A stretch of DNA of 64,000 bases, taken from NCBI GenBank assembly GCA_946902875.1, contig OX336340.1, positions 24,815,566-24,879,565 of the forward strand. The letters are read 5' to 3'. The notes beneath the pieces were generated by a model. That model was not told the DNA's origin. It did no database searches and saw only the letters and a list, made by a program, of their open reading frames with translations. This stretch comes from Nematopogon swammerdamellus. Lineage: Eukaryota > Arthropoda > Insecta > Lepidoptera > Adelidae. Both the position numbers and the translations under genes were made by a program. Positions 36,906 to 61,047 of this stretch are shown here, piece after piece (within the stretch, counting starts at the first letter, position 1; each line of letters starts with the position of its first letter).

Positions 36906-36929
36906 ATATTATGATAATTTCAACTTGGT

Positions 36930-39503
36930 AACGAGGGTCTGATGATGGAGTCAGGAGGAGGACAGTGGAACTCTTCAACCGTTACTAGTAACCCCCTCGA
37001 CTTTGGGCTCATATGGTTGGTTTGGACGAGTGTTCCATACTTCTACCAATACACTTGGTGACGAGGGTCTGATGATGGAGTCAGGAGGTGGACAGTGGAA
37101 CTCTTCAACCGTTACTAGTAACCCCCTCGAGTTTGGGCTCATATGGTTGGTTTGGAAGAGTCTCCCATACTTCTACCAATACACTTGGTAACGAGGGTCT
37201 GATGATGGAGACAGGAGGTGTACAGTGGAACTCTTCAACCGTTACTAGTAACCCCCTCGAGTTTGGGCTCATTTGGTTGGTTTGGACGAGTGTCCCATAC
37301 TTCTACCAATACACTTGGTGACGAAAGTCTGATGATGGAGTCAGGAGGTGTACAGTGGAACTCTTCAACCGTTACTAGTAACCCCCTCGAGTTTGGGCTC
37401 ATTTGGTTGGTTTGGACGAGTGTCCCATAGTTCTACCAATATACTTGGTGACGAGGGTCTGATGATGAAGTCAGGAAGTGTACAGTGGAACTCTTCAACC
37501 GTTACTAGTAACCCCCTCGAGTTTGGGCTCATTTGGTTGGTTTGGACGAGTGTCCCATACTTCTACCAATACACTTGGTGACGAGGGTCTGATGATGGAG
37601 TCAGGAGGACAGTGGAACTCTTCAACCGTTACTAGTAACCCCCTCGAGTTTGGGCTCATATGGTTGGTTTGGACGAGTGTTCCATACTTCTACCAATACA
37701 CTTGGTAACGAGGGTCTGATGATGGAGTCAGGAGGTGGACAGTGGAACTCTTCAACCGTTACTAGTAACCCCCTCGAGTTTGGGCTCATATGGTTGGTTT
37801 GGAAGAGTGTCCCATACTTCTACCAATACACTTGGTAACGAGGGTCTGATGATGGAGTCAGGAGGTGTACAGTGGAACTCTTCAACCGTTACTAGTAACC
37901 CCCTCGAGTTTGGGCTCATTTGGTTGGTTTGGACGAGTGTTCCATACTTCTACCAATACACATGGTGAAGAGGGTCTGATGATGGAGTCAGGAGGTGTAC
38001 AGTGGAACTCTTCAACTGTTACTAGTAACCCCCTCGAGTTTGGGCTCATTTGGTTTGTTTGAACGAGTTTCCTATACTTCTACCAATACACTTTTTGACG
38101 AGGGTCTGATGTTGGAGTCAGGAGGTGGACAGTGGAACTCTTCAACCGTTACTAGTAACCCTCTCGAGTTTGGGCTCATTTGGTTGGTTTGGACGAGTGT
38201 CCCATACTTCTACCAATACACTTGGTGACGAGGGTCTGATGATGGAGTCAGGAGGAGGACAGTGGAACTCTTCAACCGTTACTAGTAACCCCCTCGAGTA
38301 TGGGCTCATTTGGTTTGTTTGAACGAGTTTCCTATACTTCTACCAATACACTTTTTGACGAGGGTCTGATGTTGGAGTCAGGAGGTGGACAGTGGAACTC
38401 TTCAACCGTTACTAGTAACCCTCTCGAGTTTGGGCTCATTTGGTTAGTTTGGACGAGTGTTCCATACTTCTACCAATACACATGGTGACGAGGGTCTGAT
38501 GATGGAGTCAGGAGGTGTACAGTGGAACTCTTCAACCGTTACTAGTAACCCCCTCGAGTTTGGGCTCATTTGGTTGGTTTGGACGAGTGTCCCATACTTC
38601 TACCAATACACTTGGCGAGGGTCTGATGATGGAGTCAGGAGGTGGACAGTGGAACTCTTCAACCGTTACTAGTAACTCCTCGAGTTTGGGCTCATATGGT
38701 TGATTTGGACGAGTGTCCCATACTTCTACCAATACACTTGGTGACGAGGGTCTGATGATGGAGTCAGGAGGTGTACAGTGGAACTCTTCAACCGTTACTA
38801 GTAACCCCCACGAATTTGGGCTCATTTGGCTGGTTTGAACGAGTTTCCCATACTTCTACCAATACACTTGGTGACGAGAGTCTGATGATGGAGTCAGGAG
38901 GTGGACGGGGAACTCTTCAACCGTTACTAGTAACCCCCTCGAGTTTGGGCTCATATGGTTGGTTTGAACGAGTGTCCCATACTACTACCAATACACTTGG
39001 TGACGAGGGTCTGATGATGGAGTCAGGAGGTGTACAGTGGAACTCTTCAACCGTTACTAGTAACCCCCTCGAGTTTGGGCTCATTTGATTGGTTTGGACG
39101 AGTGTCCCATAGTTCTACCTATATACTTGGTGACGAGGGTCTGATGATGGAGTCAGGAGGTATACAGTGGAACTCTTCAACCGTTACTAGTAACTCCCTC
39201 GAGTTTGGGCTCATATGGTTGGTTTGGACGAGTGTCCCTTACTTCTACCAATACACTTGGTGACGAGGGTCTGATGACGGAGTCAGGAGGTGTACAGTGG
39301 AACTCTTCAACCGTTACTAGTAACCCCCTCGAGTTTGGGCTCATAGGGTTGGTTTGGACGAGTGTCCCTTACTTTTACCAATACACTTGGTGACCAGGTT
39401 CTGATGATGGAGTCAGGAGGTGTACAGTGGAACTCTTCAACCGTTACTAGTAACCCCCTCGAGGTTGGGCTCATTTTGTTTGTTTGGACGAGTGTCCCAT
39501 ACT
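36930..39503 (+). repeat. 130-bp minisatellite, about 20 units
   Basis: Units are almost all 130 bp (a few 124-126) and contain 'gagggtctgatgatggagtc', 'actcttcaaccgttactagt' and 'gggctcatttggttggtttg'. Units alternate between a few variants ('catatggttgg' and 'catttggttgg'; 'cttggtgac' and 'ctttttgac'), which shows block-wise amplification. The many short ORFs are frame slices of the 130-bp unit, not genes. Confidence 0.95.
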
Positions 39504-39923
39504 TGCCGAACGCAAAAGTATGAAACAGACATACCATCTGTTCAAATTGATTTTGAAAGAGACGGCGGACACCTTATCCATCCTAAAGCCATACAGTTTC
39601 CAGCAAAGTTTCATTATGGAACAGCTGAGAGACGGATGTTACCGATAATTTTGTCATGGGCCTCCACTGTCCATAAAATGCAGGGCAGTACTGTTGACCG
39701 TGCTGTCGTGTATTTGGGCTCCAGACTATTTGAGGAGGGTCAAGCGTATGTTGCATTGAGTCGCGTAAAGTCTTTAGAAGGGTTATGTATTGAGGAGCTT
39801 GATTGTGAGTAATTGACAGGTAAGAAACCTAGTAACAAAGATGCAATGAGAGAGTTTGAAAGGATGACGAGTTTACGTAATGAATCATACGAGCCAAAAA
39901 TCAAACTAAAAACGTGTAAATAA
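39503..39923 (+). pseudogene. Helitron helicase C-terminus with in-frame stop
   Basis: The sequence immediately after the minisatellite encodes the end of a PIF1-like helicase: [31 protein letters not shown] and [16 protein letters not shown], which are the motif V-VI region typical of Helitron Rep/helicase proteins. A TAA at 39810-39812 interrupts the frame, and the normal continuation LTGKKPSNKDAMREF runs on to the natural stop at 39921-39923. The Rep domain and most of the helicase are missing, so this is a dead fragment. Confidence 0.85.
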
Positions 39924-46469: not shown

Positions 46470-49375
46470 CTACTTCGACGGAGAGTTGATGGAATCACGA
46501 GAGTAGAGGCCGAGACGGACGCCCAGCTCTTTTGGCATCCTGATGGCGGGCCGCGCCGGGAAGGGATGGTAGGAGCCGGTGGAGGGACTGCGAGGACACG
46601 ACAGCGAGGACACCGGGTCCGTCTCCACCAGCGACGTGATCTGACTCGACGTGTCGTCCGGCGACATCGTCGACTTCTCCGGAGGCTCCTTCGGCGTCGG
46701 CGTGTCCTTCGGGAAAATCTTGGGCGATATCGGTGTCGAGATCTGGTCCAGTGAGGTTATCTGACAGAGAGTGTCACTCGAGTTGCTTTTGGCGGCCGTC
46801 GGTGAGTCGTCATCGGCGGACGGCTCGTACGAAAAACTGACGGACGAAGTCACCACGAAGGCAAAGTCGCTCCCCTGGCTGCTCTCGCCTCTAGATGAGT
46901 TTTCGCACACTTTCGGCCCTCGGTCGAGCGTCCTACTGCAGATGTCGCTCGCCCGAGACAGGAGACAGTCGCTGTACTTACTTGTAAGTGAGTAGTCGTA
47001 CCGGTCGCTCGTCGGATCTACGCTTTTGCTTTGATAGCGCGATGTGCTCGCGTAGCCGACGCCGCCTTGGGATCTGTCTTCGATATGTTTGTTTTTGTTA
47101 AATGTTTCCATTGACCAATCATATTTTGAGTCAGCCACCGATTTGGAAGAATTCGGGTATAAATCACTGTAGATGGGTGAAGCTGCCCTATTTAACGTTT
47201 CGGTGTCAGATTTACATTTATGGTCGCCGTCGCTGTCGCACTTGGCCAAAAACCCTTTATTTTCCCAGCCGTAACGGTCAGTTCTATTACCGATTGCGGC
47301 ATCGCTGCTGGGAGATTTTTTCAAGTGTGCACCTGATAATGTTCCCTTATTCAATGACAAGGCGTTTAGGAATGCGGTAGATGTAGGTTCATCTAGCGAA
47401 GTCGGCCTCAGTCTCATGAAAGGAGTAACCCTTTCAGTATCGTGCGCCACAGGCCGTTCATCCCATTTGATTAGAGAATCGGAAGCCGATCCTTTGAGAA
47501 CTGGCGACTCTATTATTTTCCCAGTGATGATTGAGTGGTGGGGAAATTTAAAGGTTTCGAATTCTTGCTTTCGTACCATCGACGGTCCAGCAATATCGTC
47601 TTTTGGATTAGGCGCAGCTGTAATTTGCTTGGTGAGGATCCTGTTTAATATTTTTGAATTCTCTTGAATGATCTGCAAAGCTCGTTCACTATTACGACGA
47701 CCACTTTCTAAAATACCTATTTTTTCTAGTGAATCCTTGGAAAAGACGTCTTTTTCAATACTATCGCTAAATGAAGTTCCTTCTTGCTTATCGTACTTTG
47801 CACTAGAATATTCTTTTTCTTCTTGGGAAGCATTTCTACTTGTTGTATCTAAACCTGATTTACTTGCATTATAATTGCTTTCATACTTTGCTAGACTAGG
47901 GTCATATTCAGTCTTATTTTGTAATTTTTCATTGAGGTTACATTGAAGCATAAGGGAATCCGGTTTTTTTGGCAACCGTGACAACCGTTTCTGAGTCCTT
48001 CTATTTGGTATATCGTCCTCGTCTGAACTTTGCATACCGGCTATCTTTCGCGCACCGAAAAATTCGGGACTGTGTTCAAAATATTTATCTATTTTCAAAG
48101 GTATGGGCGGTTCATCTTCGCTGATGACAATGCTCTCTCCGCCGGGACTACGCAAAGGACTTTCGATGTCCGATAAATTTTTATCTGATAAATCTATATC
48201 AGGCACAAAATTTGGACTCATGATGAGACTGTCGATAATGTCTGGTGGTCTCGGTTGAGCCGAAAATGTTCCAGAGTGGTCCGATAAAAGATCAGATAGA
48301 CGATATGTATCGCTGTACGTAGACTTGTAGTCGAACTGATACCGAGATTGTGTTAAATCCAAAGGAGTCACTTCAGTGAAAGACGTATGATTTGGACTGG
48401 GCGAGTTCTTGTGGAATTCCGGAGTCTTTATCAAATCCTTTTTCAAAGAGCATCGAAGTCCAATTATATCACTATCACTTTTAGACGTAACTTCACTGCT
48501 CATTTTGGAATTCGTATCGTCCAAATCGAGTATTGGGCTCTTCAAGCTGGTGTTGCGTAAAGGTTCGTCAGATAAGCTTTCCTCCATGTTCTTTCTATTT
48601 TCAAATTCCTCTAAGTAATTACGAAGCTGTTCCCCGGGAGTCGAACTAACGAATTCGGACAAAGCGTCAATATCACTTTTCTTTGTTTCGTCCTTAGCGT
48701 TTTCCTTTGTAATCGGAAACCGTTCAAGTTGCTCGACTTTTTCATCGGTTTCTATGTTCTCTGGGCTTTTAATACCTATGAAATCTTTTTCTTTTGATAT
48801 CCCGCCAGTATCGTCATTTGGACTATAAATCGGAGACAATCGAACTAAATCCTGAACGGATCTATTACTAGTTTCTGCTATTTGGGCAAGGTTCACCGCG
48901 TTGTCGTCAAGACTGGGAGGTTCGGAGTCGAAGTCGCTGGCGCGGTTGTGGTCATCGCACAGGCTGGTGTCGGTGCTGGACGCGGAACCCGAGCGCGACG
49001 AGTACGACGAGGATTCGCTCATGCTGCGGGAGCGCATCGCGGACATCATCTCCTTAGCTTCTAGTTCTGAAACTATCACACCATCGCCTGCTTCATCAGA
49101 CTCCAATGATGCTTTCCTCTCGTCGTCTTTTGCCTTTTTTATATCTTTCCACTTGATGGAGTCTCTCCGCGTGACGGTTTTTCTATGGTGTTCGTCTTTC
49201 CAATTGATGGTATCATCTGCCCGGGATTTAGAGCTCCGGGATGGTGCAGGACGACGCGATGGAGGTACCGCCCCGGGAGGAGGTCCCAGACGACGGCCTC
49301 GGGAGCTCACTATTGCACTCTTGCCGAGAAGGAGGTGGTTCACGGTCAGTGACGGTGGCGTAGTCGGGATTCCCA
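46470..49375 (-). CDS. TBC1D30: TBC1D30 last exon (968 codons including stop)
   Basis: The acceptor is CTTTCCAG. Two bases complete a valine codon split with the previous exon, so the ATG at 49397 is not the start. The exon opens with GIPTTPPSLTVNHLLLGK, matching the NHLLLGK motif of vertebrate TBC1D30. It continues as a Ser/Asp/Glu-rich, low-hydrophobic tail with a repeated INWKD/IKWKD motif, serine clusters (SRSMSESSSYSSRSGSASS) and many SP sites. It ends with FPARPAIRMPKELGVRLGLY, close to the vertebrate C-terminal FPSVKPLRK..NLGLYG element, so the true C-terminus is present. It is much longer than the vertebrate equivalent. Stop at 46470-46472. Confidence 0.92.
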
Positions 49376-52300
49376 CTGGAAAGATAAAATCGAACATTTA
49401 ATTTAATTTTATTCTCTCATTCTTTCTTTCTCTTTTTATTTCTAGACTAACATTTGTCCGTCGCTTTGTCTCGTAAACTTCGAATTGAAAGAATGTAGCA
49501 ATCAAGTGGGCAGCTATCACCATGCATTGATACCACCCAGTCCAGAGGTTGTCGATTGAGACGTAGAAACAGACGTACCACTTCCAACCAGGCATACTGA
49601 ACTGAGATTACATCCCTAAACTTTGAACTCAACGCGGATGCGTGTGCCTGTCGGTTCGGCAGATATTTCCTCTACAGAACCGGCAAGCACCGCAACGCTC
49701 TCCCTGCACATATGTTTCCCCCCAAGTACAGTATGGGGTCCTGCAAGAGCGGCGTGAATAGGCACCATTCGCAACGCCCGCATACGACCGAAGGTCCATG
49801 GGCGTCGGCAGACAGACACCTTATGGGTGGCACTGCGCCACACGTCGCGCTATCTATTAAAAACCGGCCAAGTGCGAGTCGGACTCGCTCACCGAGGTTC
49901 CCGTATGATGACCACGTAAACGGTGGGTTTTATTATTTGTTTATTTACTTTAGAGTGGCACTCGCACGTATCGCCATCTATCGGTGAAAGTTCGCTGAGT
50001 GGTTGGCTCAAAGCGTATCCTATTTATATTATAAGTATAACATAGATATATGTCACCTCCCTTACAGGAAATTTTGTAGAATATTAAAATGTTTTTTAAT
50101 CATGTACCTACTTTGAGTAAAATTTTAGTATTATATACAATTTTATACAATTGTAAAGTTCAATTTGAAAATGAGTGGTAGATGATGTTCGTTAAGTAAT
50201 AATTAAAAGAATGCATATATTTTATAAACAATTGTTTTTATTAACATTTTGCTTTTCATTGCTTCACTGCACATATACACGTTGGATAATTCGGTAGATG
50301 GCGCTCTTCTGAAAATTAAGATATTTTTTTTTTTTATGGAAACTTGACACGGTTGGCTACATCACCTACAACATCCGTGATGTCAGCCCATAACACCGGG
50401 TGAACTAGGTGCCATGTCAGTGCTTCCCTTCATTTCGCATATTTGTACGAGACCCCCTTTAACTTTGTACTTTTTCTATTTTTTATTATTTCTTGTTATA
50501 GGTATCCGCCATAATAACACATATTTCATGAAAATTTCAACCGGCTAGCTATTACGGTTCCAAAGATACAGCAATAGGACTGACAGACAGACAGACGGCG
50601 TAGGCTTAGTAATAGGCTTCCTTACGGGGTACGGAAACCTAAAAAGCAGACAATGCTATCTATGCTGCTCTAATTTGTGTATTTTGTCTATGTGTGCATT
50701 TATATTTCATACTACTGTTCCCTCTTTAGTACTGCATTGTCCGCCCCTATGCGTTTTCCACATCCCAAAGGTTAGTCCGTAAATAATGCCGCAAGGCATT
50801 AAGCTCGCCTTTTGTAACCCTTCTATATAATGGTGTACAATAATATATATTTTTATTTCATTTTAATTTGTATAATATAGTGCCACCAGGAAGTTATGAT
50901 GCGTGGTAAATATGCGAAACTGTCTGCATTCCTAAGAAGGGCCGTGAACTTTCGGTCGAAAGTTTGTCGATAAATTGTATGACTTAATAACCTAAATTAT
51001 CGACAAACTTTCGATCGAAAGTTCACGTCCCTTCTTAGGAATGCAGACAGTTTCGCATATTTCCCACGCATCATAACTTCCTGGTGGCACTATAGTTTGA
51101 AAATAAGTGCCTGACGTACCGGCGGCGTGCCTCGCGCACGCGGCGGCTAATATGACGTGCGCTTGCCGCTGCCTTTCGCGCAGGCGCGCGTACTGCCGCT
51201 TCAGTGCTCCGATGTCCAGCGACAGCCGGTCCCCACCAGACATGTCCGCACGTCTCGGAACATTCACCTGATGGCATGTTGCAAGAACTCAAACACTGTC
51301 ACGTCTGAATGCTAAGGCAGTAATTGGGTACATTTTCTGTGGAAAAATTCACTGGAAATACATTTAAAACCATGTGCACACAGCAAGAGACATAAATTTT
51401 CATAATTATTATTAGAAACTGAAACAAAAATCCCTTTTAAAAATAAAAATGTGTAAAATGGGGAACGCACTCCCTGCCCATCTGTTTCCTCTCAAGTACA
51501 GCCTGGGGTTTTTCCCGGGCCGGCATTCGCAATCCCCGTGCATGACAGAATGTCCATGGGCATCGTTAGACACCTACTTGTAGGTGAAACGATTTTTTAA
51601 CGATTCGATGCCACATGTCGATGGCAACATCACTTCAGGTTACTGGTTGTTCATTGCAGGCTTATATACCTACATTTAAAAAAATTTATGGAGTAAATGA
51701 AAATGTTTTGTCCCAAAACAAAAACCTATCGAAAAAAAGAGTTTCAGTAGATTTATGTATCTGTGGACGCGTTCCGAATTGCGTACTGCAGGTCTATTCT
51801 TGTAAATTCTGACAGCGGAATCAGCGCTGATGTGGCGCAGAGAGCCACTTACCAAAGTGACTCTCAGCGCCACAACAGCGCTGATTCCGCTGTCAGAATT
51901 TACAAGAATAGACCTGCAGAGCAATATATACCCGCGTACGAGCATTCAGAATTGAATTGAACAATAATAATTAGTTACGTTAATTAGAAAGAGAAAAAGA
52001 ATTAGTTACCGTCGCTAGAGCCATCTTGTTGCCTTCGTCACTGGAGTCGCCTTCGTCCTCGGAGTAGAATAGTTTAAGGCCTCTCCTGGTCACCGACTGA
52101 ACCTGCAATTAACAAAATAATTACTTCCTCTACATTGATCATCAGTAGAGACACACACACTCACACACACCACAGCTGTATCATCCGTCACCTACAACAT
52201 CCGTGATGTCAGCCCATAACACCGGGTGAAGTAAGCCATGTCAGTGCTTCGCTTAATGAAATTAATATGCTAAAATTGTGTATTTTGGCACTAGTTTCAT

Positions 52301-55300
52301 GAAAATCGGTTCAGTATATTCAGAGATATGTTTTCTTTTTTATGGAAACTGACACGGTTGGCTACATCACCTACAACATCCGTGATGTCAGCCCATAACA
52401 CCGGGTAAACTAGGTGCCATGTCAGTGCTTCCCTTCATTTCATGTCGGCTACACTGAACTGGACGGAAAACATGAACTATTTACATAGCCGTTTCGGCCG
52501 ACGACGACGTTTCATTCAGTGCGGTGGTACCAACCCGGGCGGGATAAACCCTACCACCTAGTAAGGTAAGAATAGAAGGGACCTACAGTTTTTACGTGGA
52601 ATCCAAACCACGGTCAGCCTCCAACGGTCGAGAGGTCACCCAACCAAGTACTGACCGCGCTAAGGGTTGCTTAATAACAGTGGATCGACCGTACCACTGA
52701 GCTACCGAGGCTGAGTTAAAAGTTAAAACCCACTGCACAGGTTTCTCGAAAACAAAAACCAAAAAACTACTAATAAAGTACAACATAGATACTCGTAGTA
52801 ATGTAACAGTTAATTAAATTAAAGTATAAATGTATTTCACTAGGGGTTTTATTGTACGTTTGGAAGTAACTTTACGATTGTTTTCTATCGAGAAAATTTC
52901 ATGGAATCACGTTTTCGCCAAACATAATACCTAGAATTAGTACTCTACTTGCGAAGCAATGTATGGTATTAGAGAAAGGAAAGGGAAAAGGAAAGAAAAA
53001 GGAAAGAGTTCTCGCTCAACGTCAATCCCGATAAGACTGAACTAGTTCTCTTTACACACAAACGGAAGTTAGGCGACTTAATACTGCCAAAACTCTTCAG
53101 CACCCCAATACCCCTGGCAACAGAAGTCAAATACCTGGGCATCACACTTGACAGTAAGCTAAACTGGGCCAAACATCTTAATCTTAAAATAAATAAAGCT
53201 CGTATAGCCTTTTGGCAATGTCGCAGACTCATAGGTAAGACATGGGGACTCAACCCTAACATTACGCTGTGGCTATACTCAGCTATAATAAGACCTATGG
53301 TAACCTATGGTGCAGTAGTATGGTGGCCCAGGACCAAACTCAGCACAGTTATTAACAAACTTCAAAGTTTCCAGCGTCTAGCGTGCGTTGCGACCACAGG
53401 GTGCATGCGCACAACACCCACAGCAGCGATGGAAGCCATGCTGTGCCTTCCGCCTCTTGAACTTTTCATACAACAAGAGGCGGCAGCCGCAGCAATTAGG
53501 CTGAACGTCCTAGGACTGTGGAGGGCTAGTACACAAACACCACACACGACCATACTTCAGGAAATCATGAAAAAACATCCCCTGATAGAGGCACCGTGTG
53601 ATAGAATCAGGAAAACACACGTGTTTGACAAACACTACTATGTAGAACTAGCTGAGGAACCTAAGGACTATTCGGGGTCCGAGGTAAGAATATACACCGA
53701 TGGGTCAAAAACAGGGTCGGGAACAGGGGCAGCAGCTTTCTCACTTGACCTAAACATACATAAGACAATCACTCTAGGTATTCACAACTCAATCTTCCAG
53801 GCTGAGTGCATCGGAATAATAGAGGCAGCAGCGGCAGTACGCAGCAGAGAAATCACTGGTTACCAGATCAGAGTACTGTCAGACAGCGCATCGGTGCTAC
53901 AAGCCCTAAACACCGTGACAATCAACTCCGGACTGATACTCCAGTGCCACCAGGCACTAGAGGGTATAGCGGTAAACAACAAGGTATCCCTACAGTGGAT
54001 CAGGGGGCACAGCGGCTCCTACGGGAACGATGCGGCGGACGAGCTGGCTAAACGGGGCTCCAGCTGGAGTGCAGAAGGCCCAGAACCGTATGTACCCTTA
54101 CCAATCAGCCAGTTCAAATATTGGCTACATCAACTTACAAAATCTAAACATGAAAATCTTTGGGCCAACACCAGGGACTGCAGGCAATCCCGGGAAGCCA
54201 TTCCCAAACCAGACCTGAGACTCAGGAAATGCCTGCTAAAGTTCCACAGAGGTCAACTGCGTATGGCGGTAGGACTTCTTACGGGTCATTGCCCACTCAA
54301 CAGACACTTGTTTACAATAGGTGTCACCGACAGTCCCCTGTGCAGAGGCTGCATGGCGGAGGACGAATCAGCCACCCACGTGCTCCTGGAGTGCCCGGTG
54401 GTGGCAGAAGTACGACTGCAGTTTCTTGGGAACGTGGGAACTGCCCATGGAGTGTGGAAGCGTCCAAGAAGAGTGCTCCACTTCATGAAAGAGCTCGGGT
54501 GGCTGGAGTAACACCACCCGAGCGCCAACGTACAACGGACCGTCTTGAGGTCTCAGTGCGGAGAATGGCCCACCCGTCTTCCCAAGAGGCTGGGCAGCAA
54601 ACAACAACAACAACAACAACATGGTATTAGAGACTCTTAAATGGTCAATAAATAAATAATACAGTAGAGAGAGAGAATTATGTCGTAAAAGGCTACTAAG
54701 GGATATGACTCCCTTCATATATTACTAGGTGGTAGGGTTTTACCGCCCGGGTTGGTGCCACCGCACTGAATGAAAGGTCGGTCGAAACGGCAATGTAAAT
54801 AGTTTGTGTTTTCCGTCCAATTCAGTGTAGCCGGCACGACCGAAGGGAAGCACTGACGTGGCACCAAGTTCATCCGGTGTTATGGGCTGACATCACGGAT
54901 GTTGTAAGTGATGTAGCCAACCGTGTCAGATCCCATAAAAAAAATAAAAAAAAATCTGTTAAGTGCGAGTTTTACTCGCGCACAGAGGTTTCCGTATCTA
55001 TCCGCTATAAATAATATCCGCCTATCCGCTCAGGTAGTATGGTCTTCGAATTTTAATTTCGAAGATATGTAGGACGATCGGAGAGAAGCCTCAATGAGGT
55101 CGATAGCAATTTACGGTGGGAAAATGACAGCAACTCAATGAGATCGTTAGCAATTGAGCGGCTATCTTTTGTTTTTCAACATGCAATGTATAAAAGCCTG
55201 TGGCGCCATCTATTATTCAATAGTGTGACTAATCTATTTTATTGTACGTTTCTCGTATGTTAATCCCCTTAATTTTTAACATTTTCTTTTTTTTTTTTCT

Positions 55301-58300
55301 TATTTGTTGTTATATCCGCCATAGTAACGCATATTCTGTGAAAGTTTCAACGGGCTACCTATTAAGGTTCAAGAGATACGGCCCTCGGACAGACGGACGG
55401 ACGAAAGGACGGACGGACGGACGGACAGACGGCGGAGGCTTAGTAATAGGCTTCCGTACGGGATACGGAAACCTGAAAATGATGACGTACCGCAGAGTGT
55501 ATGACGGGCGGTGCGTGCGAGGAGGGTGGGGGCGCGGGCGGGGTGACATGGTAGCGGTGCAGGTCGCGCAGGCGCGGCAGCTCCGGAGCCTCACCCAGCG
55601 CCACCACGCGCGCCACCAGCGCCTCCCCAGCCTCCCACACAGCGCCGGCACCGCCGCCCATGCAGCTGTAGAACTCGTCTGCCGAGCGCGCTGACAGGAT
55701 ACGACTGAAATGGACATCATACGAGTACATACATACAGGGCATCTGTATTCCGAAAATTGGGGTAAGCGGAATAATCGGTGTAGTGCTGCGAGAACTCTG
55801 GTGGATTACAGCGCAACACGGACCACCCCATTTAGCAAAATATAGGACAAGATAATTTATCGAATTTGAATCGAAGATCGAAGATTAAATACCGATTGAA
55901 GGAATGAAGTCAGTTACCTGCCCACTGCATAACTGTGAAAGGCCCGTGCCAAGGTGAGAGTTGCCAAGGTGAGAGGTACCAAGGTGAGAGGTTTTTTTTA
56001 TGTAATCCGGTGTGGGTGGCTGAGTCGGAGGGGCCAAAGCACATGCTCCGATCAGCCAATATCACCTCCGAGAAGGTAGGTGCCATACCGGAGACTTCCC
56101 TGGATTGCTGGCTATACTGGACTAGAGGAGAACACAACCGAGGCTGTTATGCGGACATCTTACATCCAGTACGGTGGTACCAACCCAGTCGGCTACAATT
56201 TCTGCCTACCACCTAGTAAGGGGCAAGGGAAGGGACCTACAGTTTTAAACCGGTTCCGAACGGTGAAGCAGCAGGTGTAGGTATGCACGTAATTTTTTTC
56301 GCCAGAAAAAACCCATTGGTTCACGCCGACCGAATTCGAACCTTGGACCTCTCGCATGAGAAGCCGATGCCCAAACCACTCGGCCACCCGCTGCTTGGTG
56401 CCAAGGTGCCAAGGTGAGAGGTGCCAAGGTGAGAGGTGCCAAGGTGAGAGGTGCCAAGGTGAGAGGTGCCAAGGTGCCGTGAGAGGCACCAAGGAGAGAA
56501 GGATCCTATCGCTCTTAATCACGGCATCTTGTCCTCATCCCTTAGGCGGCTTTTACGACATGCAGTAAACTGACAGAGACTGAAACTCCTAGTGCTTGAA
56601 TTGTAACATAGGTAAATAGTTAGTAAGTAAGGTGAACAAATCCTAAGGATAATTTTTGCTGGTTCTTTCATGGTTGATCGTCAAAACTGTATAATGCATG
56701 AGAAACATGACTTATCAAAGCACATACTATCCATCCATTTATTAGTACAAAGCCATAAACGTACTCCTGAAGAAGGTCCCATATTGCAAGCGCCGTCAAC
56801 AGCAGCACTTCGTTGCCGTCGAGGAAGACCAGATCCCATACCCTGAGGAGAGCGCCGCGCGGCAACCACGTCGCGTACAGCGTCAGGAACCACTGCATCG
56901 TGAAGACGTCGGGCAGTGGTGGCTCTACACCACCACCTGTGGATGAAAACCAGAAGCATAAAGAGCAACAAATAGACGAAATATCGAATATTATAGCTCT
57001 TGCATGAGTGACCGCCCGACCATTGACGCTGGCCTTCGTTCGGATTCCACGTAAAACTGTAAGTTACCCAGGGTCCTTAATAGGTGGCAGGGTTTAATGC
57101 GGCCGGATTGGTACGGCGACAATTTCCAATTTACCTCCCGGCCTTCCGATGTACGGAACCACTGCTTTCCGCCGACGTACTTACTTGATGGCATCGTCCC
57201 ACCAAGCGGGTGATTCTCCCTAGGACACTGTAGGACACTGTTAGTACTCCAAAGGTCGACGTCTCTTCGGAGTAGGAGAAGGTATGTCGGGATTCACAAA
57301 AAGTCTCTATGAACGTTTGTACATTACCATCGGAAGCGCGATGCAGGCAGTCCAACTGTCCAAATGCTGTGCCAGTCAAGGCATCCTAACCCTTACCAGG
57401 TCTCTGAAGGCGACCATGTCCGATGAGAGGCCGCGCAGACTGTCTGCGAAGTAACCTTCCAGCAGGACAGCTTCCACCAGGTAGATCATCACCTAGTAAT
57501 CATGGCTAAGTAAATTACCATCGGAAGTGCGCTGCAGGCGGTCCATGTGCTGTGCCAGCCGAGGCAGCCTGATCCTCAGCAGGTCTCTGAAGGCGTTCAT
57601 GTCCGCTGAGAGGACGCGCAGATCGTCTGAGAAGTAACCCTCCGGCAGGACAGCCTCCACAAGGTAGATCATCACCTGGTAATCATGGCTAAGTACATTG
57701 CCATCGGAAGCGCGCTGCAGGCGGTCCATGTGCTGTGCCAGCCGAGGCAGCCTGATCCTCAGCAGGTCTCTGAAGGCAACCACCTTCGCTGAGAGGCCGC
57801 GTAGATCGTCTGCGAAGTAACCCTCCAAGCCTCCACCAGGTAGATCATCACCTGGTAATCATGGCTAAGTACATTACCATCGGAAGCGCGCTGCAGGCGG
57901 TCCATGTGCTGTGCCAGCCGAGGCAGCCTGATCCTCAGCAGGTCTCTGAAGGCAACCACCTTCGCTGAGAGGCCGCGTAGATCGTCTGCGAAGTAACCCT
58001 CCAAGCCTCCACCAGGTAGATCATCACCTGGTAATCATGGCTAAGTACATTACTATCGGAAGCGCGCTGCAGGCGGTCCATGTGCTGTGCCAGCCGAGGC
58101 AGCCTGATCCTCAGCAGGTCTCTGAAGGCGTCCACCTTCGCTGAGAGGCCGCGTAGATCGTCTGCGAAGTAACCCTCCAAGCCTCCACCAGGTAGATCAT
58201 CACCTGGTAATCATGGCTAAGTACATTACCATCGGAAGCGCGCTGCAGGCGGTCCATGTGCTGTGCCAGCCGAGGCAGCCTGATCCTCAGCAGGTCTCTG

Positions 58301-61047
58301 AAGGCGTCCACCTTCGCTGAGAGGCCGCGTAGATCGTCTGCGAAGTAACCCTCCAAGCCTCCACCAGGTAGATCATCACCTGGTAATCATGGCTAAGTAC
58401 ATTACCATCGGAAGCGCGTTGCAGGCGGTCCATGTGCTGTGCCAGCCGAGGCAGCCTGATCCTCAGCAGGTCTCTGAAGGCGGCCATGTCCGCTGAGAGG
58501 CCGCGCAGACTTTCTGTGAAGTAACCCTCCAGCAGGACAGCCTCCACCAGGTAGATCATCACCTGGTAATCATGGCTAAGTACATTACCATCGGAAGCAC
58601 GCTGCAGGCGGTCCATGTGCTGTGCCAGCCGAGGCAGCCTGATCCTCAGCAGGTCTCTGAAGGCGGCCATGTCCGCTAAGAGGACGCGCAGATCGTCTGC
58701 GAAGTAACCCTCAGGCAGGACAGCCTCCAGCAGGTAGATCATCACCTGGTAATCATGGCTAAGTACATTACCATCGGAAGCACGCTGCAGGCGGTCCATG
58801 TGCTGTGCCAGCCGAGGCAGCCTGATCCTCAGCAGGTCTCTGAAGGCGGCCATATCCGCTGAGAGGCCGCGCAGGTCGTCTGCGAAGTAACCCTCAGGCA
58901 GGACAGCCTCCAGCAGGTAGATCATCACCTGGTAATCATGGCTAAGTACATTACCATCGGAAGCACGCTGCAGGCGGTCCATGTGCTGTGCCAGCCGAGG
59001 CAGCCTGATCCTCAGCAGGTCTCTGAAGGCGGCCATATCCGCTGAGAGGCCGCGCAGGTCGTCTGCGAAGTAACCCTCAGGCAGGACAGCCTCCACCAGG
59101 TAGATCATCACCTGGTAATCATGGCTAAGGTCAACCTCGTGGCAGTGGAGTAAGGGCCTTGCTTGGTTGGCGGAAGATCGTGCGTTCGTTCCCAGCTGGA
59201 GTGCACCACTTTCTTCTCTCTCCGAGTTTGACAAGTTCATTTCTATCGTGGACTGCTGCATGATTGTGATTCTTTGTAATATTATACTTTATGCCAATGT
59301 GTGGCAAATGCGGGCTTATTACTTTAGGAAATGTCTTCCAGTTAACCCTATGGACCCAACTTTTTGTAATTTTCTAATATGTCCCCCAAAATCTAAATTC
59401 ACCCTATACGTCCGTAATTCAAACTCTATAATAAATTATTCAACTTTTTTCGTCCAGTAAGTAGATTCGGGGAAAATAAGCTGTGACAGACGGACAGACA
59501 AACGCGAGAATGATCCTATAAGGGTTCCTTTTGTTTCCTCTTTTTAGATCAAAGGTTTACCGAAAGAATTGCGATAAAAATATGCAAACATACGAATATT
59601 TAGGTCACATTAAATTGTGTTGTTACACACAAAAAATTATATTGTATATTTTTAATTAGAAAAATGCAAATCGAAAATAATTTGAAAAAATACATCCCGA
59701 CCAGAATTTTTGCGAAGTCAACTTGCACGGTTCCCCATTGAACCTTATGCACCCAATCGTGCAAGTTGACTGTTCGCAAAAAAAATTATGCGAAATAATG
59801 AAGGTGCAATAGATCGAAAATTTGGAGATAATACGTAACGGCCCGATGGTGTAGTCAGTTAACGCGTTGGCGGCTCAAGCCAGAGACCCAGGTTCAAATC
59901 CTGGTCGGGTTGTATTTTTTCCATTGATTTTCGATTTTTTATTTTATTGTGTCCAATGAAGAGTTTTTATTCTATTCTTCTTCTTGCATCTTCATGTCGC
60001 GTCGTGTCTCGGTCTGAACTGACCCACATCTGCGGTGTCATCAAGGATATTCGTCCATGGGTGTCACAGGCGTAGTATCGTATCCTATTCCATCATACGA
60101 GGTGTGGCAATTAAGTTCCGGGAATTTTTCAATAAAACACAAACAAATTAGGTTACGAACAAAATTGTATTATCGACTTTCACAAATTTATAGTATCCCT
60201 GTAACTCTACACAATGATTCCAACGTCGCTCCCACAATTGGAAGCACCCTTGGTAGTCTTCCGAAGTTAACTCGCTCAGCACCGCGGTAACAGCTTCCTT
60301 GACCACCTGTACGCCGCCATGATGAGTTCCCTTGAGGTGCAAACTTCAAGAAGAAGTCGCAGGGGGTGATATCGGGGCTATAGGGTGGGTGCGGCAACGT
60401 TGGAATGCCTTTTTTCCAAAGATTTAAATAGTTAGATACAGCTTCGCCATACCCGGCACGCTATCAAACACGTTAGCATTAAATGTATGGCATGCAACTC
60501 ATTAATATTAGACAGCAACATACGCAATCCATTAGTGCGACAGAGATAGTTATTCGTTCGAGCGCTTTTATTGTTCGCATTGCTGGTGACGAGTGCTAGC
60601 GTCCTATTAGGAATCTAAACTATTTAAATCTTTGCTTTTTTCGCCAAAAACTCTTGCACAATGAACGAGGAATGAGCCGGCGCGTTGTCGGGGTGCACTG
60701 GGTGAGTTCACTCATTTTCACGACGACACTAAAAAAGTTACTTTAGAAAAACACACATAAAAAACAAACGAAACACGCCATTAATTTCGAATGGAACGAA
60801 AGGAAGGTCCCTTCTTTCCAGTCATATGTTTATAAACGACGCAGTGTTGCCAGTTCCCGAGTTTTATCCAAATTCCCGGGATTCCCGGGACTTAATTGCC
60901 AAACTACGTATAATACGAAAAATAGCAAAGCTGATACGAGAGCTGATATATACCTTCAGAGAGTCGGACTCAGATTTGTCCATCACTTCCAGAATGATCG
61001 CGGCCAACATGTTGAAGCCCTGGCAGTAGCCGACGTCCTTGTTCCAC
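46470..61047 (-). CDS. TBC1D30: TBC1D30-like Rab GTPase-activating protein, C-terminal exons
   Basis: TBC proteins stimulate GTP hydrolysis by Rab GTPases with an arginine and a glutamine finger; mammalian TBC1D30 acts on Rab8 and affects cilia. The minus-strand exons are 61047-60954, 59111-58955 (plus nine tandem copies), 56936-56765, 55704-55491, 52102-52010, 51267-51120 and 49375-46470. They join in consistent phases and match the vertebrate order: GYCQGFN, MIYLVEAVLPEGYF, VFTMQWFLTLYATWLP, RSADEFYS, DIGALKRQYARL and VNHLLLGK. The arginine finger and N-terminus lie right of the window. The last exon adds ~970 disordered residues. A cilium-related role in moths is inference only. Confidence 0.93.
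49630..49860 (+). repeat. LINE-R 3' fragment in the TBC1D30 intron
   Basis: Runs from 'gatatttcctctacagaacc' to 'gtcgcgctatctattaaaa'. A ~50-bp repeat D end in antisense ('ccggccaagtgcgagtcgga') follows at 49862-49915. Confidence 0.75.
49916..50328 (-). other. TBC1D30 intron, unassigned
   Basis: AT-rich; no exon signal or repeat recognised. Confidence 0.5.
50329..50645 (-). repeat. SINE tail fragment and adjoining repeat D copy
   Basis: Positions 50329-50435 hold the antisense SINE tail with its T-run; 50440-50645 hold an antisense repeat D ending 'ttccttacggggtacggaaa'. Confidence 0.72.
50646..50860 (+). repeat. LINE 3' tail relative
   Basis: 'ccacatcccaaaggttagtc' and 'ttaagctcgccttttgtaac' resemble the LINE tail at 24840-25090, but diverged. 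Confidence 0.45.
50879..51094. mobile_element. Palindromic MITE (family C), third copy
   Basis: The arms and tips are as in the other two copies. It lies only 25 bp inside the intron that follows TBC1D30 exon 51267-51120. Confidence 0.85.
51120..51267 (-). CDS. TBC1D30: TBC1D30 exon, ALKRQY segment
   Basis: The acceptor is GCCATCAG and the donor GTACGT. It has forty-nine codons plus one base and encodes VNVPRRADMSGGDRLSLDIG then ALKRQYARLRERQRQAHVIL. The INALKRQY..RIKKKQ..QVH segment of vertebrate TBC1D30 is the counterpart. It is probably a short helical or coiled region. Confidence 0.9.
51460..51620 (+). repeat. LINE-R-related 3' fragment
   Basis: 'gggaacgcactccctgccca' through 'gaatgtccatgggcatcgtt' to 'gccacatgtcg'. 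It shares the variant end 'cacctacttgtaggtgaaac' with the GLDC 3' UTR copy. Confidence 0.7.
51785..51921. mobile_element. Short MITE with ~44-bp perfect terminal inverted repeats
   Basis: The arm 'ctgcaggtctattcttgtaa' and onward to 'gcgctg' (51787-51831) is mirrored at 51876-51920. The interior holds a second, imperfect pair ('gcgcagagagccactta'). It sits in a TBC1D30 intron. Confidence 0.8.
52010..52102 (-). CDS. TBC1D30: TBC1D30 exon, acidic linker
   Basis: The acceptor is AATTGCAG and the donor GTAACT. It has thirty-one codons and is phase 0 at both ends: VQSVTRRGLKLFYSEDEG then DSSDEGNKMALAT. It corresponds to the acidic DSDEEND region after the TBC domain in vertebrates. Confidence 0.85.
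52331..52713 (-). mobile_element. SINE-A, full length
   Basis: An antisense copy with poly-A (T-run), complete tail and body, a 5S-like block ('gcgctaagggttgcttaata') and a head ending 'gagctaccgaggctga'. A second SINE tail scrap lies at 52180-52255. Confidence 0.85.
52963..54633 (+). mobile_element. 5'-truncated LINE with RNase H, flanked by a 13-bp duplication
   Basis: The direct repeat ATGGTATTAGAGA at 52963-52975 and 54621-54633 flanks the insert, and the 3' end is a (CAA)n tail (about 54598-54620). This proves a retrotransposition event into the TBC1D30 intron. The 5' end is cut inside the reverse transcriptase. Confidence 0.93.
52976..54511 (+). pseudogene. LINE polyprotein C-terminus: RT end, RNase H, zinc knuckle
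   Basis: The frame is open from the insertion point, through FSLNVNPDKTELVLF, EVKYLGITLDSKLNWAKH and MVTYGAVVWW (53297), to the stop at 54509-54511. Counted from that Met, the RNase H domain shows YTDGSK (D135), E170, SDSAS (D196) and GNDAADELAK (D245). A C-x2-C...H...C motif (CRGCMAEDESATHVLLEC) follows. The catalytic YADD lies in the lost part, so the piece cannot transpose. The family is distinct from LINE-R, which has no RNase H. Confidence 0.88.
54669..54939 (+). mobile_element. SINE-C, head shortened
   Basis: Starts within the head ('atgtcgtaaaaggctactaa') and has the common body, tail and poly-A. Confidence 0.8.
54955..55478 (-). repeat. Repeat D, long antisense copy
   Basis: From 'gttaagtgcgagttttactc' to 'gtacgggatacggaaacc', with the (GGAC/AGAC)n block at 55384-55432. 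It includes the ~100-bp 'atagcaatttacggtggg' segment also present in the copy at 3291. It ends 12 bp before the donor of a TBC1D30 exon. Confidence 0.8.
55491..55704 (-). CDS. TBC1D30: TBC1D30 exon, end of TBC domain
   Basis: The acceptor is CATTTCAG and the donor GTACGT. One base completes aspartate, then 71 codons follow: RILSARSADEFYSCMGGGAG, then ALGEAPELPRLRDLHRYHVT and a proline-rich end. The SADEFYS motif and PxLxxLRxxxxYxxTP match vertebrate TBC1D30. Higher G+C than its flanks. Confidence 0.92.
55735..55860. repeat. Repeat H copy
   Basis: 'gcatctgtattccgaaaatt', 'ggggtaagcggaataatcgg' and 'tgctgcgagaactc' match the other H copies. Confidence 0.5.
55950..56495. repeat. 15-bp minisatellite split by a SINE
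   Basis: Units of 'gtgccaaggtgagag' lie on both sides (55950-55991 and 56395-56495) of a SINE-B. The SINE inserted into an existing array, or the array expanded afterwards. Confidence 0.85.
55992..56396 (-). mobile_element. SINE-B, full length, inside the minisatellite
   Basis: An antisense copy from the poly-A (T-run at 55992) to the tRNA-like head (about 56318-56396, complement of GTGGCCGAGTGG). Confidence 0.87.
56765..56936 (-). CDS. TBC1D30: TBC1D30 exon, TMQWFLTL segment of the TBC domain
   Basis: The acceptor is CATCCACAG and the donor GTACGT. Two bases complete a glycine shared with the preceding exon, 56 codons follow, and it leaves with GA. It encodes GGVEPPLPDVFTMQWFLTLY, ATWLPRGALLRVWDLVFLDG and NEVLLLTALAIWDLLQ, the conserved TBC block with FTMQWFLT and RVWDxxF. 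Confidence 0.95.
57000..57195. repeat. SINE-A fragment and RTE-like fragment
   Basis: Positions 57000-57112 hold a degraded SINE-A middle part in sense; 57120-57195 read on the minus strand KYVGGKQWFRTSEGRE, the RTE-like C-terminus also found at 32258 and 62190. Confidence 0.6.
57328..57492 (-). pseudogene. TBC1D30: Duplicated exon, tenth copy (degenerate)
   Basis: 165 nt with an 8-bp net insertion, a TGA after VRVRMP and a changed acceptor (ATTACTAG). It is the oldest-looking copy. Its downstream flank diverges eight bases after the donor, which marks the array end. Confidence 0.85.
57519..57675 (-). CDS. TBC1D30: Duplicated exon, ninth copy (intact)
   Basis: 157 nt, with EGYFSDDLRVLSADMNAFRD and QRTSD. 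It is intact although it lies beyond the four broken copies. Acceptor and donor are standard. Confidence 0.7.
57702..58379 (-). pseudogene. TBC1D30: Four frame-broken duplicated exons (7-bp deletion)
   Basis: Copies 58379-58230, 58203-58054, 58027-57878 and 57851-57702 are 150 nt each. All lack the same 7 bp in the AVLPE codons, so the frame runs YLVEAWRVTSQTIYAASQRR to a stop. They share other changes (LSAKVDAF or LSAKVVAF), so one broken unit was amplified. Their inclusion would truncate the protein. The copy at 57702 has GC in place of the GT donor. Confidence 0.88.
58406..58562 (-). CDS. TBC1D30: Duplicated exon, fourth copy (intact, most divergent middle)
   Basis: 157 nt; the middle reads LLEGYFTESLRGLSADM in place of LPEGYFADDLRGLSADM. 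The flanks are identical to the other copies. Confidence 0.7.
58589..58745 (-). CDS. TBC1D30: Duplicated exon, third copy (intact)
   Basis: 157 nt; differs by YLLEA and by LRVLLADM in place of LRGLSADM. Confidence 0.7.
58772..58928 (-). CDS. TBC1D30: Duplicated exon, second copy (intact)
   Basis: 157 nt with one change from the first copy (YLLEA for YLVEA). It is in frame with its neighbours, so copies 1 to 4 also form one continuous open frame through the 26-bp spacers (each adds NVLSHDYQ). Confidence 0.7.
58955..59111 (-). CDS. TBC1D30: TBC1D30 duplicated exon, first copy (default form)
   Basis: This 157-nt exon enters in phase 0 and leaves with one base. It encodes VMIYLVEAVLPEGYFADDLR, then GLSADMAAFRDLLRIRLPRL and AQHMDRLQRASD. 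The vertebrate counterpart is IMIYLIDKVLPESYF..LRALSVDMAVFRDLL. Its acceptor is the only one with a normal long intron upstream (to 60954). Spliced to 56936-56765 it restores the domain exactly. Confidence 0.9.
59645..59940. mobile_element. Fold-back element with tRNA-like end, shortened copy
   Basis: The left end 'tatatttttaattagaaaaa' and 'tacatcccgaccag' matches 715-780, but the left tRNA-like unit is deleted. The interior inverted pair ('agtcaacttgcacggtt', 'cgtgcaagttgact') and the whole right end are present. Confidence 0.75.
59840..59911 (+). repeat. tRNA-like unit in the second fold-back copy
   Basis: 72 nt with a well-paired acceptor stem (GGCCCGA with TCGGGTT), D-arm, five-pair anticodon stem and T-arm. 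The loop again reads GGCTCAA, without U33. It is the best-folded of the three units. Confidence 0.6.
60098..60908 (-). mobile_element. Internally deleted mariner with TA duplication
   Basis: The ends 'cgaggtgtggcaattaag' and (inverted) 'cgtagtttggcaattaag' form terminal inverted repeats, each flanked by TA (60096-60097 and 60909-60910). The minus-strand transposase remnants are HPDNAPAHSSFIVQEFLAKK, then HPPYSPDITPCDFF and GTHHGGVQVVKEAVTAVLSE with a frameshift between. The N-terminal half of the transposase is deleted. A ~185-bp piece flanked by 'gatttaaatagtt'-type inverted words interrupts it at about 60433-60617. Confidence 0.88.
60954..61047 (-). CDS. TBC1D30: TBC1D30 exon with the glutamine finger
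   Basis: The acceptor is TCTCGTCAG and the donor GTATAT. One base completes the codon from an exon outside the window, then 31 codons follow: WNKDVGYCQGFNMLAAIILE, then VMDKSESDSLK. YCQG carries the catalytic glutamine of TBC domains. Vertebrate TBC1D30 has RWNKNVGYCQGFN here. It ends in phase 0, as the duplicated exon requires. Confidence 0.95.

What the first reader, a model, noticed from the sequence alone, without database searches (positions are those of the whole stretch)
57322..59129. Ten tandem copies of a single catalytic-domain exon in TBC1D30
Seen: one 157-bp exon of the Rab-GAP (TBC) domain is repeated ten times, with units that include only 18 bp before the acceptor and 8 bp after the donor. 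The 26-bp spacers carry a donor at one end and an acceptor at the other. Inference: the spacers are far below workable intron length, so adjacent copies cannot be spliced together. A transcript must pick one copy, or skip spacers by reading through (183 = 61 codons, frame kept). That geometry would enforce mutually exclusive choice by steric hindrance, or allow TBC domains with one to four repeats of the segment. I know of no such array in this gene.
Basis: partly seen in the sequence, partly recalled or inferred. Interest (0 to 1): 0.9.

Follow-up and report, generated by a model that had tools for sequence, protein, structure and literature searches.

The report
Exon caught in a repeat array
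In this moth genome a small stretch of DNA holding one exon of a Rab-GAP gene has multiplied into ten head-to-tail copies; half of the copies are broken and only the first keeps every conserved amino acid, so the array looks like a repeat that grew across an exon rather than a designed splicing switch, and two other genes in the same genome show something similar.

Summary
The array is real: ten head-to-tail units at 57321-59129, minus strand, in an otherwise intact TBC1D30 gene; a whole-genome search reported no match elsewhere. But they are not ten equal exons. Copies 1-4 and 9 have the intact 157-bp exon. Copies 5-8 share a 7-bp deletion (150 bp; stop when entered normally). Copy 10 has a stop and an 8-bp insertion. 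At every position where copies differ, copy 1 has a residue found among 94 insect homologues; copies 2, 3, 4 and 9 each carry at least one residue seen in none. The 26-nt spacers are too short to splice, but skip-one introns are 202-209 nt, so steric hindrance would not enforce one choice. Long-unit arrays are common here (9, this one included, in 143 kb; 4 in 60 kb elsewhere), and scans of three families showed two more exon arrays (RABGAP1-like, PAS-kinase-like) whose units lack the normal acceptor. Best explanation: an exon-spanning minisatellite in which copy 1 serves as the exon and the rest is removed as intron. Alternative use of copies 2-4 or 9, or read-through, is not excluded without RNA.

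The parts
60954..61047 (-). TBC1D30 exon upstream of the array (carries YCQG); ends in phase 0
   Evidence: GT-AG boundaries and continuous frame in the assembled gene
58955..59111 (-). Copy 1: intact 157-bp exon, phase 0 to 1; proposed working exon
   Evidence: At all positions that differ between copies its residue occurs among the 94 homologues; flanking phases fit
58772..58928 (-). Copy 2: intact 157-bp exon; V6L not seen in 94 homologues
58589..58745 (-). Copy 3: intact frame; V6L, G21V and S23L, none seen in 94 homologues (G21 and S23 are invariant there)
58406..58562 (-). Copy 4: intact frame; P11L (P invariant in 94), A16T and D17E not seen in homologues; D18S seen in 24
58230..58379 (-). 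Copy 5: 150 bp, 7-bp deletion; stop in the normal phase, open if entered in phase 1
58054..58203 (-). Copy 6: 150 bp, same 7-bp deletion; last exon base G to A
57878..58027 (-). Copy 7: 150 bp, same 7-bp deletion
57702..57851 (-). Copy 8: 150 bp, same 7-bp deletion; donor GC instead of GT
57519..57675 (-). Copy 9: intact frame; G21V and A27N not seen in 94 homologues; A16S and A50T seen once each
57328..57492 (-). Copy 10: degenerate, TGA in frame, 8-bp insertion, 18-25 substitutions against each other copy
56765..56936 (-). TBC1D30 exon downstream of the array; skipping the array reads V-V-V-stop at its start
55491..55704 (-). TBC1D30 next exon
51120..51267 (-). TBC1D30 next exon
46470..49375 (-). 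TBC1D30 last coding exon, ends at a stop codon
   Evidence: start corrected by one base

Best explanation
A minisatellite grew across one exon of TBC1D30. A segment of about 183 bp holding the exon, its acceptor end and its donor was duplicated in tandem. It then expanded by unequal exchange or slippage: copies 5-8 are a local expansion of a unit that had already lost 7 bp (shown by their shared deletion and 1-4 differences). Because each unit carries its own splice sites, the upstream exon can join the acceptor of copy 1, and the donor of copy 1 can join the downstream exon, so one good copy is enough. Copies 2-10 are then removed as part of a 2.0-kb intron and drift (inferred). Any use of them would be splicing noise: single use of 2, 3, 4 or 9, read-through within 1-4, or addition of 5-8.
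For: At all positions differing between copies, copy 1 has a residue present among 94 homologous insect proteins, while copies 2, 3, 4 and 9 each have at least one residue seen in none of them. Five of ten copies cannot serve singly. Copies 5-8 are near-identical, showing recent local expansion. Long-unit arrays are common here: 9 (this one included) in 143,435 bp of this locus and 4 in 60,000 bp from six places elsewhere. Two further exon arrays in the genome have units without the normal acceptor, as I read them (RABGAP1-like, 131 bp x 13.2; PAS-kinase-like, 196 bp x 5); in the kinase, copies 2-4 have DFS for DFG. Each of the 94 matched homologues has the segment once (94 of the 120 listed, of 1065 found; some are from the same species).
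Against: Copies 1-4 are all open, in frame and joined by stop-free spacers, and copies 2-4 keep the same splice-site letters as copy 1. Pooled pN/pS among the five intact copies is 0.55, not 1 (pairs 0.34 to 1.55, one pair without synonymous change; few sites), so past constraint on some copies is not ruled out. A 62-bp run is identical in copies 1-9 (20,000-shuffle p = 0.0004), which I explain only by conversion or shared recent origin. A branch-point motif count favoured copy 1 (and copy 10), but 6 of 8 other acceptors of the gene also lack the motif, so I discard it. No RNA was available.
Confidence: 0.8

Rival explanations
1. A mutually exclusive exon cluster: the splicing machinery picks one of copies 1-4 or 9, giving Rab-GAPs with slightly different TBC domains.
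For: Five copies fit both neighbours in frame; neighbouring copies cannot be joined across 26 nt; two full-length copies joined lose the frame; 18 of 24 variable columns among copies 1-9 fall in unit positions 33-99. Such clusters are not rare in insects: PMC9741552 (passage read) counts 154 Drosophila genes, just over 1.1%.
Against: Five copies are dead for single use; residue changes in copies 3, 4 and 9 hit sites invariant in 94 homologues; non-adjacent copies have workable 202-209-nt introns; the units of the other two arrays found lack the normal acceptor.
Confidence: 0.08
2. A variable-length Rab-GAP: read-through of spacers within copies 1-4 (157, 340, 523 or 706 nt), or insertion of phase-symmetric copies 5-8 after one of copies 1-4, gives TBC domains with extra 50-61-residue segments.
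For: Open joins: 11 of 55 read-through choices (ten within copies 1-4, and copy 9 alone); 16 of 45 pairs, 24 triples and 16 quadruples, each one of copies 1-4 followed by copies from 5-8 (some need the unspliceable 26-nt joins). The 7-bp deletion makes copy 5 open when entered in phase 1.
Against: Any frameshifting deletion of that length class has this property if the short 5' part is stop-free, so chance is sufficient. Extra helices inside a compact TBC fold are unlikely to be tolerated (inference). None of the 94 homologues matched shows a doubled segment.
Confidence: 0.06
3. An assembly artefact: the true locus has one or a few copies.
For: No reads could be examined; tandem repeats are a common assembly error.
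Against: Units differ by deletions, stops and substitutions in an ordered way, which stuttering would not create; the array is 1.8 kb, within one long read (inference); the contig is chromosome-sized (26.1 Mb).
Confidence: 0.06

Closest known systems
Exonic or splice-site-spanning minisatellites (VNTRs)
   Same: Tandem units with local homogenisation, internal variants and many similar arrays in the genome
   Different: The unit is an entire exon with both splice sites, inside a conserved enzymatic domain; population variation not testable here
Mutually exclusive tandem exon clusters (Dscam type; PMC6071210 and PMC5740500, passages read)
   Same: Tandem homologous exons whose joint inclusion (two full-length copies) loses the frame; spacing below the 50-bp donor to branch-point limit used for potential steric interference in PMC5740500
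   Different: Half of the copies cannot serve singly, copies are near-identical, and steric exclusion cannot rule more than two exons
RABGAP1-like and PAS-kinase-like exon arrays of the same genome (L017, L024)
   Same: Tandem arrays of an exon-sized unit spanning the donor, downstream of an intact first exon
   Different: Their units lack the first bases of the exon and the normal acceptor; units of 131 and 196 bp
Ten 609-base tandem repeats in C. elegans frm-1 (PMC4039745, passages read)
   Same: Ten long-unit tandem copies in introns beside alternate exons of a gene
   Different: Not described in the passages as copies of an exon; affects a different gene and animal

Membership tests
Mutually exclusive exon cluster | Copies have intact reading frame and matching phases | tested here: not met
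   5 of 10 copies can replace the exon singly
Mutually exclusive exon cluster | Each copy kept by selection | tested here: inconclusive
   Copies 2, 3, 4 and 9 each carry residues seen in none of 94 homologues, but pooled pN/pS is 0.55 on few sites
Mutually exclusive exon cluster | Geometry forbids joint inclusion | tested here: not met
   Adjacent spacers 26 nt, but skip-one introns 202-209 nt
Mutually exclusive exon cluster | One and only one copy in mature RNA | not testable with these tools
   No RNA data
Mutually exclusive exon cluster | Competing docking and selector RNA pairings | not tested
   -
Minisatellite | Head-to-tail tandem copies of a unit | tested here: met
   Period 183, 10.0 copies
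Minisatellite | Local expansion of variant units | tested here: met
   Copies 5-8 share a 7-bp deletion and differ by 1-4 bases
Minisatellite | Copy number varies between individuals | not testable with these tools
   One assembly only
TBC1D30 orthologue | Best matches are TBC1D30 proteins over most of the length | tested here: met
   The best 36 listed proteins are 51-59% identical over 66-100% of the query; those with a name are Lepidopteran, several called TBC1 domain family member 30

The most novel reading that the evidence does not exclude
This genome has a recurrent process that turns single exons together with their 5' splice site into tandem arrays. Three arrays are seen in scans of only three protein families; all three units are exon-sized, with both ends within about 30 bp of the exon ends (read). 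In TBC1D30 the array has become splice-competent, so that a length- and sequence-variable Rab-GAP domain is expressed: copies 1-4 or 9 alternatively, 1-4 read through, or phase-symmetric copies 5-8 added as cassettes.
Probability: 0.1. Interest if true: 0.8.

Novelty: new variant of a known kind. Interest (0 to 1): 0.42.

Why it matters
It shows how a tandem repeat can swallow an exon without killing the gene: if every unit keeps its splice sites, or if the first exon stays whole with its own donor, the surplus copies become intron. That is a plausible raw-material stage for mutually exclusive exons, seen here perhaps three times in one genome. It also warns gene annotators against counting such copies as alternative exons.

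Tried and rejected
Branch-point motif (yTnAy) as a marker of copy 1: rejected, because copy 10 also has one and 6 of the 8 other acceptors checked in the gene lack it. Retrocopy or dispersed element as the source: no match outside the array was reported. Diversifying selection between copies: not shown, pooled pN/pS 0.55. Circular-RNA or retrotransposition origin of the units: rejected, because units carry intronic bases. Array in relatives: not testable on DNA; only proteins of relatives were seen. 26 of the 120 listed proteins gave no match to the segment and were not counted; one of the 94 (P0044) matched only its first 40 columns. A fourth family scan (PF00225, and one request for PF00443) did not complete. 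The family tables were checked for repeated exons by eye.

Full report
Observation. The window lies on a chromosome-sized contig (26.1 Mb) of a 699-Mb genome in 39 contigs. Tandem Repeats Finder gives an array at 57319-59129, period 183, 10.0 copies. Read on the minus strand, a full unit is 18 bases before an acceptor, the exon, and 8 bases after the donor; nine spacers of 26 nt separate ten exon copies. A genome-wide search with the unit reported ten matches, all in the array (one candidate place was passed on and scored, and the tool calls its repeat counts lower bounds).

The gene. I assembled ten exons on the minus strand from the window and 80 kb upstream. Their phases fit throughout and give 1403 residues (the 5' end is not complete). 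The best 36 listed homologues are 51-59% identical over 66-100% of the query; those with a name are Lepidopteran, several called TBC1 domain family member 30. The repeated exon is PF00566 positions about 98-159, and a fragment joined across it scores 95 bits. It runs phase 0 to phase 1, so leaving the whole array out gives V-V-V-stop.

The copies are not equal. Copies 1-4 and 9 have an intact 157-bp exon. Copies 5-8 share a 7-bp deletion, differ from each other by 1-4 bases, and read into a stop in the normal phase. Copy 10 has a TGA and an 8-bp insertion and differs from each other copy by 18-25 bases. Copy 8 has a GC donor and copy 6 an altered last exon base. Of 1065 homologues found, 120 were listed; 94 of these matched the segment, each once, and 26 did not match. 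Some of the 94 are from the same species. P11, G21 and S23 are the same in 94 of 94, and position 6 is I or V in 94 of 94. Copy 1 has, at all positions that differ between copies, a residue found in the homologues. Residues seen in none of them are: L6 in copy 2; L6, V21 and L23 in copy 3; L11, T16 and E17 in copy 4; V21 and N27 in copy 9.

What splicing could do. Of 55 acceptor-to-donor read-through choices, 11 are in frame and open: ten within copies 1-4, and copy 9 alone. Neighbouring copies are 26 nt apart, but the next but one is 202-209 nt away, a workable intron (established knowledge, not tested). So steric hindrance would not force a single choice; [quoted passage not shown] PMC5740500 used less than 50 bp between donor and branch point as potential steric interference and found it in 57 human clusters, 9% (passages read). 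Two full-length copies joined lose the frame. One of copies 1-4 joined to copies from 5-8 keeps it (16 of 45 pairs are open, all of this kind), because the 7-bp deletion makes copies 5-8 phase-symmetric. Any deletion of that length class would do so if the short leading part is stop-free, so I do not read design into it.

Context in the genome. With period at least 50 bp, length at least 300 bp and at least 2.5 copies, there are 9 arrays, this one included, in 143,435 bp around this gene and 4 in 60,000 bp from six places elsewhere. One of them ends about 12 bp before TBC1D30's second assembled exon. Scans for three families then asked how often exons are caught; I checked the tables by eye. 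TBC: 70 of 70 candidates scored, 62 matches, this array and a second in a RABGAP1-like gene; a pair on C25 with overlapping profile ranges was not followed up. RhoGAP: 56 of 56 scored, 58 matches, no array seen. Kinases: 129 of 580 scored, 135 matches, one array in a PAS-kinase-like gene. The RABGAP1-like unit is 131 bp x 13.2 copies, about 99.6% identical: the exon minus its first bases, the donor and a short piece of intron, with a stop in the read-through frame. The kinase unit is 196 bp x 5: the exon minus its first 15 bases, the donor and 11 bases; copies 2-4 have DFS for DFG, and copy 5 has CSAE for CSPE. Neither unit carries the normal acceptor as I read it, so those arrays cannot be menus of whole exons. 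These two genes were not compared with homologues beyond the solved structures. That two of three arrays lie in the same part of a TBC domain may be chance; the TBC search was prompted by the first.

Mechanism. Shown: tandem units, local expansion of the deleted variant, one copy with all conserved residues. Inferred: duplication by slippage or template switching (a short sequence shared at the unit ends is visible in the kinase array, GAGTA), spread by unequal exchange, splicing through copy 1, and drift of the rest. Against this: pN/pS 0.55 among intact copies, an identical 62-bp run in copies 1-9 (p = 0.0004 against random placing), and unchanged splice-site letters in copies 2-4. PMC9741552 counts 154 Drosophila genes, just over 1.1%, with tandem duplicated exon substitution (passage read), so real clusters are not rare in insects. 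RNA would decide.

Literature. Searches for tandem exon duplication with mutually exclusive and insect, TBC1D30 (20 of 118 listed), minisatellite with exon and splice terms, steric hindrance, exon duplication with minisatellite and moth, duplicated exons not spliced, minisatellite with Lepidoptera and exon and TBC1D30 with exon duplication terms (8 of 1,246 listed) showed no paper that I recognised, from titles and abstract starts, as describing such an array in this gene. Only passages of four papers were read. Most subscription papers are not held.

Noticed in passing
L017 3153-4884 (C4:4122153-4123884), minus strand: RABGAP1-like gene with 13.2 tandem copies of a 131-bp unit (most of a TBC-domain exon, donor, short intron piece), about 99.6% identical, at the domain position of the TBC1D30 array.
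   Followed up: partly
L024 3392-4376 (C1:26365392-26366376), plus strand: PAS-kinase-like gene with five tandem copies of a 196-bp unit around the catalytic-loop exon; copies 2-4 have DFS for DFG.
   Followed up: partly
C25:12994714-12995049 and C25:12996310-12996690, plus strand: Two TBC matches about 1.3 kb apart with overlapping profile ranges (70-183 and 83-199, the second with two stops): a possible further duplicated exon or a second gene.
   Followed up: no
window 36923-39504: Array of about 20 copies of a 130-bp unit with stops in all six frames in the part examined.
   Followed up: no
C8:24885678-24886400 (beyond the window, L009): A 64/247-bp array ends about 12 bp upstream of TBC1D30's second assembled exon.
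   Followed up: no
window 60148-60460: Fragment resembling a mariner-type transposase (recalled motif) in the intron upstream of the array.
   Followed up: no
window 52973-54511, plus strand: 512-codon open frame resembling the RNase H end of a non-LTR retrotransposon (recalled), in a TBC1D30 intron.
   Followed up: no
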